A stretch of 46,394 nt of DNA, taken from an uncultured Anaerolineae bacterium (GTDB taxonomy: Bacteria > Chloroflexota > Anaerolineae > CG2-30-64-16). Positions 27,979-31,761 of this stretch are shown one piece after another. The stretch lies in NCBI GenBank assembly GCA_937124585.1, contig CAKZKT010000082.1, positions 1 through 46,394 on the forward strand. The letters are read 5' to 3'. Made by a program: the position numbers and the translations under genes. Position 1 is the first letter of the stretch. Each line of letters starts with the position of its first letter. The notes under the pieces were generated by a model, which was not told the DNA's origin, did no database searches, and saw only the letters and a program-made list of their open reading frames with translations.

Positions 27979-30900
27979 ATGAACACGGTGCACTCATTTG
28001 AGGCCTTTGCGCCGTTCCTCGATGACGAGGCAGCCCGCCGTTTGCTGGCGCCCATCGGCTTTGCCGATCCGGCTGCGGCCAGCCGCAGCGTGCGCGATCT
28101 GGCCGCGCTGCCCGGCGCCTCGGCCCATCTCGGCCGCATCTGGCCCTGGCTGACGACCGCGCTGGTGGCCGCAGCCAGCCCCGATCGGGCACTCACCAAC
28201 CTGACCCGCTTCGTCCGGGCCGTCGCGAACGGCCCCGCGCTGCTTGCCAGACTGACCGACGACCAGCGCCTGATCGAGATGCTGGTCACGCTTTTCGCCG
28301 GCAGCCAGTTCCTCACCGAGATCCTGCTGCGCAACGACCTCGACCTCTCCCGCCTCGCCGATCGTCATAGCCTGACCCGGCTGAAGACGGCCGATCAATT
28401 TGCGGTCGAAGCCGCGGCTGTCGCCAACCCGACCGCAAAATCGTCCGACGCCGGCGCCGGCCGTGAGCTGGCCTTTCATTCCCTGGCCGGCGACGCCCTC
28501 GACGCGCTCCGCCGCTACCAGCGCCAGGAGCTGCTGCGCATCGGCATCTGCGACCTGTGCGGCCTGCTCGATCTGCCCTCCGTGACCCAGCAGCTCTCCA
28601 ACCTGGCCGAGGGCATCCTGCGCGTCGCGCTCGATCTGGCGGCCCGCCAGACCGACACCGATCTGCGCGGCTTTGTGGCGCTGGCGCTGGGCAAACTCGG
28701 CAGCGGCGAGCTCAACTACAGCTCCGACATTGACCTGCTCTTCCTGGCCGCCACAGACGCGACCCGCTATCAACGCCTGGCCGTCCGCCTGATCGCCGCG
28801 CTCTCCGAGGCCACGGCCGAGGGCTTCCTCTATCGGGTGGACATGCGCCTGCGGCCCTGGGGAGCGGTCGGTCCCCTCGTCGCCACGGTTGGCGGCCACC
28901 TGAAATACCTGCAACAACACGCCCGGCTGTGGGAAAAACAGGCGCTCCTGCGCGGCCGGCCGATCGCCGGCGACTGCGCACTGGGCCAGGCTTTCCTCGA
29001 ACAGGCGGCCGGGCTGATCTTTGCCGCCGATCACGAGGCCGTGCGCGCCGACGTCCACGCCATGAAGCAGCGCACCGAGGCGCGGCTGCGCGAGCTCGGC
29101 CAGAGCTGGGGCGAGGTCAAACTGGGCGAAGGCTCCATCCGCGATGTCGAATTCGTCGTCCAGTTCCTTCAATTGATCCACGGCGCCGCCTACCCCGACC
29201 TGCGCACTGGTGCCACGCTCGACCTGCTGGCGCGCCTGGCCGACCACGGCCTGATCACCGCGGACGAGCGCCGCATCCTGACCGAGGGCTACCTCTTTCT
29301 GCGCACCGTCGAACACTACCTGCAGATTCTGGACTACCGTCAGACCCACATCCTGCCAACCAACCCGGCCGATCTGCGCTATCTGGCCCAGCGCCTGGGT
29401 TATACCGGCGACGAAGCAGCCCATCGCTTCGTGACCCGCTACCAGCAACACAGTGCAGCCGTGCGCGCCATCTATCAACGCTACCTGGCTGCGCCAGCCA
29501 GCGCATCAGGAGGTTCTGCCATGACAACGACCGTCGGACAGCCCTCTCATTCGGTGAACCAGGCCGCGGCCGAGCTCGTCGAAACGCAATTCCGCCAACA
29601 CCTCGCTCGCATGTCGCCTTCCTATGCAGAAGCCTTCAGCGAGGCCGAGATCCGCCGCCACGCCGACCTGGCCGCGCGGCTGAGCGACTCCAATCCGGTC
29701 GAAGTGCGCGCGGAAGCGATCGGCGAGTCGCTCTGGCGTGTCACCATCGTCGCTTTCGACTACCTGGGCGAACTCTCGGCCATCTGCGGCCTCCTCTTCG
29801 CCGATGGCTTCAACATCATTGACGGCCAGGTGTTCACCTACGATGTAGATGCCGGCGCAGGCGCCGCCAGCACCTCGGATCGTGCGGCCGGCGCGACGAT
29901 GACCGGCTGCGGCCGACGCAAAATCGTGGACGTCTTCACCGTGGACTCCACGCAGGCCGAAGCCAGAGCCGGCAAAGGCGTTCTCGGTCGAGAGCTGTGG
30001 CTTAGCTACGCTGGCAACCTGGCCGCGCTGCTCCGTCTGCTGCAGGGCCGCCAGCAACGCGAGGCCCAGGCTGAGCTCGCCAAACGGGTGGCCGCGGCCA
30101 TGCGCAGCGCGCCGATGGCCAGCCCGACACTGCATCCGGTCGAAATCACCGTAGACAACGAGGCATCGGACCACTACACCATCCTGCGCATCTCGGCCCT
30201 CGACACCCCGGGCTTCCTGTACGAGTTCACCAACGCGCTGGCGCTCAACGGCATCTACATCGCTCAGGTCAGCGTCAATTCCATCGGCAATCGGGTGCAC
30301 GACATCCTCTACGTCACCGATGCGCAGGGCCGCAAAATCACCGATCCCACCCGACAGCGCGAGCTGCGCGCCGCCACCGTGCTCGTCAAACACTTCACCC
30401 ACCTGTTGCCGCATTCGCCCAATCCCGGCGCGGCCCTGCTCCACTTTCACGAGTACCTGGGCGAGCTCTTCCGCCGGCCATCGTGGCCCGATGAACTCGC
30501 CTCACTCGAACGGCCGGAAGTGCTGGCTGCGCTCGCCCGTCTGCTGGGAGTCAGCGAGTTTCTGTGGGATGACTTCCTGCGCATGCAATACGCCAACCTC
30601 TTCCCGGTCGTCGAGGACGTCGCCGGCCTGGCTGCCCCGAAGCCGAAGCCGGCCCTGGAGGCCGAACTGGCCGCCGAGTTGGCTGCCGCGGCCGACCCTC
30701 AGGAGCGTCGCCGCCGGCTGAACGCGTTCAAAGATCGGGAGATGTTTCGCATTGACATGCGCCACATCATGGGTCATACCCCCGAATTCGGCCAGTTCGC
30801 GGCCGAGCTGACCGATCTGGCCGAGACGGTGGTGGCGGCTGCCGTCGGCCTGGCCTGGGCCGAACTGACCGCACAATACGGCGAGCCGCGCGCGGCGGAT

Positions 30901-31761
30901 GGGGGGCCGATCCCGTTGGCTGTCTGCGCGTTGGGCAAATGCGGCGGCTATGAGCTGGGCTATGCATCCGACATCGAGCTCATGTTCGTCTACGGCGGGC
31001 CGGGTCAGACGACCGGCCCGCGCGTGCTCAGCGCGGCCGAATTCTTCGAGCGCCTCGTGACCGAATTCAAGGCCGCCATCTGGGCGCGGCGCGCGGGCAT
31101 CTTCGAGATTGACCTCGAGCTGCGGCCCTACGGCAACGCGGGCAGCCTGGCCGTCTCGCTCGATGCCTTTCGCCGCTACTTCGCGCCGGGCGGCCCGGCC
31201 TGGAGCTACGAGCGCCAGGCGCTGATCAAGCTGCGGGCTATCGCCGGCGATCCGGCTTTCGGCCGCCATGTCGAGACGCTGCGCGACATGTTCGTCTACG
31301 AGTCGGGGGCGTTCGACGTGGCCGCCATGCGTGCCATGCGCGAACGCCAGCTGCGCCACCTGGTGACGCCCGGCGCCATCAACGCCAAATTCAGCCCCGG
31401 CGCGCTGGTGGATGTAGAATATACCGTGCAGGGCCTGCAGATGATCCATGGCCGCAGCCATCCGCAGATCCGTCTGACCAATACCCAAGCAGCCATCCAG
31501 GCACTGGCGCAGGCCGACATCATCTCGGTCGAAAACGCAGCCCGGTTGAGCAGGGCGCTGCTCTTCCTGCGCGAGCTGATCAACGCCCTGCGGGTCGTGC
31601 GGGGCAACAGCAAAGACCTCACCGTGCCACCGGAAGAGAGCGAGGAATTCGCGTTCCTGGCCCGTCGTCTGGGCTACGGCAGCGAGCCCGGTCGCCTGCG
31701 CGCCGACCTGACGCACCATCTCGAATGGGTGCGCCAGCTCAACGTGCGCCTGCTCGGATGA
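27979..31761 (+). CDS. glnE: GlnE-type glutamine synthetase adenylyltransferase with central ACT domains
   Basis: Bifunctional-type nucleotidyltransferase of 1260 residues; classical GlnE has about 950. Half 1 has the catalytic motif GKLGSGELNYSSDIDL at 238-253 (Asp250, Asp252) and VDMRLRP (Asp288), then a helical GlnD_UR_UTase-type domain (GSIRDVEFVVQFLQLIHG, 385-402). Half 2 has GKCGGYELGYASDIEL at 986-1001 (Asp998, with Glu1000 in place of the second Asp) and IDLELRP, then SPGALVDVEYTVQGLQMIHG. Between them lie two ACT-like regions (about 586-695 and 733-812, LDTPGFLYEFTNALALNG) of the kind that senses glutamine in GlnD. In E. coli GlnE the two halves remove and add AMP on glutamine synthetase. 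An in-frame ATG at residue 515 has a perfect ribosome binding site. The ATG at 27979 itself has a weak one. Confidence 0.9.
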   Translation: MNTVHSFEAFAPFLDDEAARRLLAPIGFADPAAASRSVRDLAALPGASAHLGRIWPWLTTALVAAASPDRALTNLTRFVRAVANGPALLARLTDDQRLIEMLVTLFAGSQFLTEILLRNDLDLSRLADRHSLTRLKTADQFAVEAAAVANPTAKSSDAGAGRELAFHSLAGDALDALRRYQRQELLRIGICDLCGLLDLPSVTQQLSNLAEGILRVALDLAARQTDTDLRGFVALALGKLGSGELNYSSDIDLLFLAATDATRYQRLAVRLIAALSEATAEGFLYRVDMRLRPWGAVGPLVATVGGHLKYLQQHARLWEKQALLRGRPIAGDCALGQAFLEQAAGLIFAADHEAVRADVHAMKQRTEARLRELGQSWGEVKLGEGSIRDVEFVVQFLQLIHGAAYPDLRTGATLDLLARLADHGLITADERRILTEGYLFLRTVEHYLQILDYRQTHILPTNPADLRYLAQRLGYTGDEAAHRFVTRYQQHSAAVRAIYQRYLAAPASASGGSAMTTTVGQPSHSVNQAAAELVETQFRQHLARMSPSYAEAFSEAEIRRHADLAARLSDSNPVEVRAEAIGESLWRVTIVAFDYLGELSAICGLLFADGFNIIDGQVFTYDVDAGAGAASTSDRAAGATMTGCGRRKIVDVFTVDSTQAEARAGKGVLGRELWLSYAGNLAALLRLLQGRQQREAQAELAKRVAAAMRSAPMASPTLHPVEITVDNEASDHYTILRISALDTPGFLYEFTNALALNGIYIAQVSVNSIGNRVHDILYVTDAQGRKITDPTRQRELRAATVLVKHFTHLLPHSPNPGAALLHFHEYLGELFRRPSWPDELASLERPEVLAALARLLGVSEFLWDDFLRMQYANLFPVVEDVAGLAAPKPKPALEAELAAELAAAADPQERRRRLNAFKDREMFRIDMRHIMGHTPEFGQFAAELTDLAETVVAAAVGLAWAELTAQYGEPRAADGGPIPLAVCALGKCGGYELGYASDIELMFVYGGPGQTTGPRVLSAAEFFERLVTEFKAAIWARRAGIFEIDLELRPYGNAGSLAVSLDAFRRYFAPGGPAWSYERQALIKLRAIAGDPAFGRHVETLRDMFVYESGAFDVAAMRAMRERQLRHLVTPGAINAKFSPGALVDVEYTVQGLQMIHGRSHPQIRLTNTQAAIQALAQADIISVENAARLSRALLFLRELINALRVVRGNSKDLTVPPEESEEFAFLARRLGYGSEPGRLRADLTHHLEWVRQLNVRLLG
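29508..29523 (+). promoter_or_regulatory. Internal ribosome binding site and in-frame ATG within glnE
   Basis: AGGAGG at 29508-29513 stands seven bases before an in-frame ATG at 29521-29523. The site lies in an Ala/Ser/Gly linker exactly between the first GlnE half and the ACT part. Initiation here would give a 746-residue protein made of the ACT domains and the second catalytic half. Confidence 0.65.

What the first reader, a model, noticed from the sequence alone, without database searches (positions are those of the whole stretch)
27979..31761. GlnE with GlnD-like ACT domains placed between its two catalytic halves
The 1260-residue protein has both nucleotidyltransferase plus helical units of GlnE, separated by about 300 residues with two ACT-like segments. 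In known nitrogen control, ACT domains sit at the C-terminus of GlnD, where they sense glutamine, and GlnE receives the signal through PII. A GlnE carrying its own ACT pair could sense glutamine directly and shorten the cascade. The domain order is read from the sequence; the sensing role is inference.
Basis: partly seen in the sequence, partly recalled or inferred. Interest (0 to 1): 0.75.

Follow-up and report, generated by a model that had tools for sequence, protein, structure and literature searches.

The report
GlnE enzyme carrying GlnD's sensor domains
In a group of Chloroflexota bacteria, the enzyme that switches glutamine synthetase on and off carries, between its two catalytic halves, the amino-acid sensor that other bacteria keep on a separate protein (GlnD), and most of these bacteria lack GlnD and its messenger PII, so nitrogen sensing may happen inside the switch itself.

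Summary
Window 27979-31761 (+) encodes a 1260-aa GlnE: a deadenylylase (AR) half, about 300 residues, then an adenylylase (AT) half. The centre is the C-terminal module of GlnD (pre-ACT segment, ACT1, ACT2): it aligns colinearly with E. coli GlnD 659-876, and AlphaFold2 gives two ACT folds (mean pLDDT 88.8). It is not a one-off. The same architecture appears in about 65 loci, mostly Anaerolineae, and in 4 of 40 Calditrichota genomes. Both catalytic centres and both ACT loops are conserved. glnA often lies next door, and its product always carries the modifiable tyrosine. In the class survey, 34 of 150 genomes encode it; none has GlnD, and 26 of the 34 also lack canonical PII. Three cultured or complete genomes show the same. 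The window's own genome has PII but no GlnD. Two MAGs from other phyla carry it together with GlnD and PII, so it does not strictly replace them. Best explanation: a reversible glutamine synthetase adenylyltransferase gated in cis by its own GlnD-derived ACT pair, probably sensing glutamine. The sensing step is inferred; the ligand was not tested. No paper describing it was found in the open-access library. New variant of a known kind.

The parts
27979..31761 (+). ACT-type GlnE, 1260 aa, whole ORF
   Evidence: full-length relatives
28276..29001 (+). N-half nucleotidyltransferase (PF03710, residues 100-341), deadenylylase-like (AR)
   Evidence: groups with AR halves in the tree of halves
28726..28842 (+). 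N-half catalytic acids D250, D252, D288 (motif G..ELNYSSDID, then YRVDMRLRP), invariant in 56 of 56
29080..29481 (+). N-half GlnD_UR_UTase helical domain (PF08335, residues 368-501)
29545..29676 (+). GlnD-type pre-ACT helical segment (residues 523-566, ARMSPSYAEAFSEAEIRRHADLA)
   Evidence: aligned with the HD-to-ACT connector of E. coli GlnD; helices in the model
29698..30045 (+). ACT1 (residues about 574-689; loop DYLGELS, family consensus DYPGELS)
30142..30414 (+). ACT2 (residues about 722-812; loop DTPGFLYEFTNAL; D742, T743, G745, F746, L747, Y748 invariant)
30520..31308 (+). C-half helical start and nucleotidyltransferase (residues 848-1110), adenylylase-like (AT)
   Evidence: (3k7d)
30970..31113 (+). 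C-half catalytic acids D998, E1000, D1045 (GYASDIEL, then FEIDLELRP); D-x-E instead of D-x-D, invariant in 56 of 56
31348..31752 (+). C-half GlnD_UR_UTase helical domain (PF08335)

Best explanation
A reversible glutamine synthetase (GS) adenylyltransferase/deadenylylase with a built-in nitrogen sensor. The N half should remove AMP from the GS tyrosine (Tyr399 here, Tyr397 in E. coli) and the C half should add it. The central GlnD-derived ACT pair sits at the junction where E. coli GlnE has only a short helical link. It most likely binds glutamine. High glutamine would favour the C half (GS adenylylated and off), and low glutamine would favour the N half (GS deadenylylated and on), with no GlnD and in most species no PII. 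Shown: domain order, colinear homology of the centre to GlnD's C-terminus, predicted ACT folds, intact catalytic acids in both halves, linkage and co-occurrence with an adenylylatable GS, absence of GlnD across the class and of PII in most carriers. Inferred: the ligand, the direction of the effect, and that PII is dispensable.
For: Centre is colinear with GlnD 659-876, including the connector before ACT1. Two ACT folds. ACT1 and ACT2 are about as conserved as the catalytic domains (mean pairwise identity 0.54 and 0.63, against 0.57 and 0.61 for the NT domains and 0.12 for the linker). Catalytic acids invariant. glnA within 4 kb of the gene in 31 of 68 loci, in different orientations. Every high-identity class-I GS recovered near the gene or from these genomes, wherever the site was covered, has DKD[LI]Y. 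GS-site pattern and GlnE co-occur, 24 of 37 vs 7 of 113 genomes, Fisher p about 1e-12. No GlnD in any of 34 carriers in the class and no canonical PII in 26; the only extra PF08335 matches in carriers are at 21-23 bits in G030 and G059, and the G030 one is a DUF294 protein, as are two similar weak matches in non-carriers. Same in Anaerolinea thermolimosa, Leptolinea tardivitalis and Leptolinea HRD-7 (complete genome). GlnD's ACT pair is considered the glutamine sensor (PMC3173338).
Against: No ligand, affinity or activity data. ACT domains bind many amino acids. The window's own genome keeps PII. Two carriers from other phyla keep GlnD and PII. The full-length model has low pTM (0.51), so contact between ACTs and catalytic halves is not shown. 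The C half is D-x-E rather than the D-x-D of described GS-ATases. Co-occurrence counts are not corrected for shared ancestry.
Confidence: 0.66

Rival explanations
1. The ACT pair senses an amino acid other than glutamine, or a combined signal (for example glutamate, an aspartate-family or a branched-chain amino acid), so GS is tuned to a different product.
For: The best Foldseek matches of the central model include ACT domains of large glutamate dehydrogenase, threonine deaminase (isoleucine) and SerB2 (serine). ACT specificity cannot be read from the fold.
Against: Sequence homology is specifically to GlnD's ACT pair, including the connector, and the enzyme often sits next to glnA.
Confidence: 0.17
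2. The ACT pair is a protein-protein or dimerisation module (for example docking GS or PII) and not a metabolite sensor; regulation is by PII where present and by direct binding of glutamine to the catalytic halves, as in E. coli.
For: The own genome and 7 of 33 other class carriers have PII. Some ACT-like domains serve dimerisation (established knowledge). E. coli ATase responds to glutamine without ACT domains (Jiang et al. 2007, title cited in PMC8097203).
Against: Most carriers have no canonical PII. The beta1-alpha1 loop aspartate and glycine of both ACTs, the ligand site in other ACT proteins (PMC3173338), are invariant or nearly so.
Confidence: 0.13
3. The C half, with D-x-E, has lost or changed its activity (for example a different nucleotide or target), so the protein is not a standard reversible GS adenylyltransferase.
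For: D-x-E in 56 of 56 plus the two one-headed proteins, against D-x-D in E. coli, 12 alphaproteobacteria, an actinobacterium and Tistrella.
Against: The third acid D1045 and the surrounding motifs are invariant, the nucleotidyltransferase superfamily tolerates Asp or Glu at this place (established knowledge), and every linked GS covered at the site keeps the target tyrosine.
Confidence: 0.04

Closest known systems
GlnE (GS adenylyltransferase/adenylyl-removing enzyme) of E. coli, actinobacteria and alphaproteobacteria
   Same: Two PF03710+PF08335 halves in the order AR then AT, catalytic acids, GS partner with the target tyrosine
   Different: The classical GlnE examined here (E. coli, alphaproteobacteria) has no ACT insert; E. 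coli residues about 444-550 form the junction. Here about 300 residues of GlnD-type ACT module lie there. The C-half motif is D-x-E. NCBIfam equivalog cut-offs are not reached (498 vs 625, 458 vs 487).
GlnD (PII uridylyltransferase/uridylyl-removing enzyme)
   Same: The connector plus ACT1-ACT2 module is homologous and colinear with GlnD's C-terminus
   Different: No HD domain, GlnE-type and not GlnD-type nucleotidyltransferases, ACTs internal and not C-terminal
Plant ACR proteins (ACR9, ACR11)
   Same: GlnD-like ACT repeats; PF24931 (ACR9-like) is the best Pfam match of ACT2
   Different: ACRs have no nucleotidyltransferase domains
Enzymes with regulatory ACT domains in cis (large glutamate dehydrogenase, threonine deaminase, SerB2)
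   Same: ACT fold attached to a metabolic enzyme
   Different: Here ACT is attached to an enzyme that modifies another enzyme

Membership tests
GlnE (GS adenylyltransferase) | Two tandem PF03710+PF08335 units | tested here: met
GlnE (GS adenylyltransferase) | Catalytic G-x11-D-x-D motif in both halves | tested here: inconclusive
   N half D-x-D met in 56 of 56; C half D-x-E in 56 of 56. Motif as stated in PMC12894286.
GlnE (GS adenylyltransferase) | AR half first, AT half second | tested here: met
   Tree of halves: N with AR (SH-aLRT 85), C outside that group. Motifs QTH.LP in N, LVD-E in C. Support is moderate and raw HMM scores do not separate AR from AT.
GlnE (GS adenylyltransferase) | Partner GS with an adenylylatable tyrosine | tested here: met
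   DKDLYGLPPEE in the own GS; DKD[LI]Y in relatives
GlnE (GS adenylyltransferase) | Reversible adenylylation of GS | not testable with these tools
   needs enzymology
GlnD (PII uridylyltransferase) | NT-UR_UTase-HD-ACT-ACT order with HD domain | tested here: not met
   No HD match in P0001; true GlnDs L110 and L131 show HD
GlnD (PII uridylyltransferase) | C-terminal connector-ACT1-ACT2 module | tested here: met
   Present but internal
ACT amino-acid-binding domain | beta-alpha-beta-beta-alpha fold with D/N-x-P/x-G loop | tested here: met
ACT amino-acid-binding domain | Binds an amino acid | not testable with these tools
   needs binding assay

The most novel reading that the evidence does not exclude
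A one-protein version of the classical two-cycle nitrogen cascade: GlnE took over GlnD's glutamine sensor, so that GS modification is controlled without GlnD and, in most carriers, without PII. A one-headed ACT-ACT-AT form in other Chloroflexota may be a still simpler version, able only to switch GS off.
Probability: 0.55. Interest if true: 0.75.

Novelty: new variant of a known kind. Interest (0 to 1): 0.64.

Why it matters
The GS/GlnE/PII/GlnD bicyclic cascade is a textbook case of signal processing. A clade that has the sensor inside the effector and lacks the middle layers is a natural experiment on what PII and GlnD add (amplification, 2-oxoglutarate and energy input). It also gives a single protein in which glutamine sensing by GlnD-type ACT domains can be studied; no GlnD entry appeared among the PDB matches of this protein. 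It would correct automatic annotation of these genes as ordinary GlnE.

Tried and rejected
An assembly or fusion artefact was rejected: full-length relatives occur in dozens of loci, including the isolates A. thermolimosa and L. tardivitalis and the complete genome of Leptolinea HRD-7. A hidden GlnD in the class was rejected: the three weak extra PF08335 matches examined are DUF294 nucleotidyltransferases. Misbinning as the source of all non-Chloroflexota hits is unlikely: 4 of 40 Calditrichota genomes carry it. Assigning halves to AR or AT by HMM score failed because scores were nearly equal; the tree and motifs were used instead. The full-length model gave no reliable arrangement of ACTs and catalytic halves (pTM 0.51). 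ACT-GlnE and PII presence are not significantly associated in the class (8 of 34 vs 17 of 113, p 0.30). Paper searches found nothing on an ACT-containing GlnE; only open-licence papers are held.

Full report
What is there. Window 27979-31761 (+) is one open frame of 1260 aa. Pfam gives two GlnE (PF03710) and two GlnD_UR_UTase (PF08335) units and an ACT match between them. NCBIfam GlnE models match both halves, and GlnD models match 510-799. The two halves match 1v4a (E. coli deadenylylation domain) and 3k7d (adenylylation domain) by sequence, and these are the top fold matches of the model.

The centre is GlnD's C-terminus. A profile of residues 520-850 aligns with E. coli GlnD 659-876 over both ACTs and the connector that precedes them, and finds nothing in E. 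coli GlnE. A direct alignment with four GlnDs shows the connector, the two ACTs and the spacer in register. ACT1 is too divergent for single Pfam ACT models, while ACT2 passes two of them. AlphaFold2 on 56 sequences gives pLDDT 88.8 with two ACT folds, and the best PDB neighbours are mostly proteins with regulatory ACT domains. In the comparisons with E. coli GlnE the AR half ends at residue about 444 and the AT match resumes at about 550-580, so the module is inserted at the AR/AT junction, next to the R region described as the PII-binding part of E. coli GlnE (PMC12894286).

It is a conserved family. One scan of genome contigs gave 68 ACT-type loci (L005-L072), overwhelmingly Anaerolineae. 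In 56 full-length sequences the catalytic acids D250, D252, D288 and D998, E1000, D1045 are invariant. Mean pairwise identity is 0.54 in ACT1, 0.63 in ACT2, 0.57 and 0.61 in the two nucleotidyltransferase domains, and 0.12 in the linker, so the ACT pair is under constraint comparable to the catalytic domains. A junction profile (A3) finds it in 4 of 40 Calditrichota genomes. The scan also gave single MAGs labelled Acidobacteriota (Thermoanaerobaculia), Spirochaetales, Fraserbacteria and Nitrospinota; their binning was not checked.

The order of the halves is the usual one. In a tree of halves the N half groups with AR halves (support 85) and the C half lies between the AR and AT groups. Motifs agree, although HMM scores alone do not separate them. 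The C half uses D-x-E where E. coli, alphaproteobacteria, Nonomuraea and Tistrella have D-x-D.

The partner is the expected one. The own genome has one GS, 471 aa, with EPLDKDLYGLPPEEAK, the E. coli Tyr397 site, in a glnA-amtB-glnK cluster on another contig. In relatives glnA lies within 4 kb of the gene in 31 of 68 loci, and every closely related GS covered at the site keeps the tyrosine. Across 150 class genomes the GS-site pattern and GlnE co-occur (24 of 37 vs 7 of 113, p about 1e-12, not corrected for ancestry). Eleven of the twelve paired-match carriers that missed the pattern have a GS with the tyrosine but a varied tail of the motif; one has no GS match.

The upstream cascade is missing. 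In the class survey 34 of 150 genomes (at least 90% complete) have paired PF08335 matches, with spacings of about 690-760 codons in the 18 measured; none has a further match that could be GlnD. Only 8 of the 34 have canonical PII (over 75 bits). A. thermolimosa, L. tardivitalis and complete Leptolinea HRD-7 have neither GlnD nor canonical PII. The window's genome has PII and no GlnD. Outside the class, GlnD occurs in G184. G427 and G428 carry ACT-GlnE plus GlnD plus PII, and in G428 amtB, glnK, glnD, glnA and glnE-ACT lie within 11 kb, so the ACT module does not exclude the classical cascade.

Mechanism. Shown: architecture, homology, conservation, partner, and the missing GlnD/PII. Inferred: glutamine as ligand (from homology to GlnD's ACT pair, which is considered the glutamine sensor, PMC3173338), the sign of the response, and cis gating of the two halves. 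E. coli GlnE is itself regulated by glutamine (title of Jiang et al. 2007, cited in PMC8097203), so the new element is the dedicated sensor and not direct sensing as such.

Novelty. Nine paper searches found no description, but only open-licence papers are held. It is a new variant of GlnE. The ACT insert, the missed NCBIfam GlnE cut-offs and the D-x-E motif in the C half set it apart; the GlnD membership test fails for lack of HD.

Noticed in passing
L111:484-3129 (G159:C20) and L112:180-2774 (G227:C44): One-headed proteins in Chloroflexota outside the class: ACT1-ACT2-AT with no AR half and no other PF08335 in the genome; D-x-E kept; no glnA in the roughly 40 kb read around each.
   Followed up: partly
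window 30970-30978 (residues 998-1000): C-half catalytic motif is D-x-E in all 56 ACT-type sequences and both one-headed ones, but D-x-D in all classical GlnE examined.
   Followed up: partly
G009, G042, G069, G088, G105, G118 (one genus, f10 g16): These genomes match the GS adenylylation-site pattern but have no PF08335 match, so a modifiable GS without a recognisable GlnE.
   Followed up: no
L002:1495-1908 (own genome PII): PII keeps a T-loop tyrosine (GPYKVDLLP) although no uridylyltransferase is found in the genome.
   Followed up: no
L130 (G428:C43, MAG labelled Spirochaetales): amtB, glnK, a divergent glnD, glnA and ACT-type glnE within about 11 kb, a complete nitrogen cassette.
   Followed up: partly
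L119 (G122:C15:82861-83118): Short PF08335 match with an in-frame TAG, possibly a glnE remnant.
   Followed up: no
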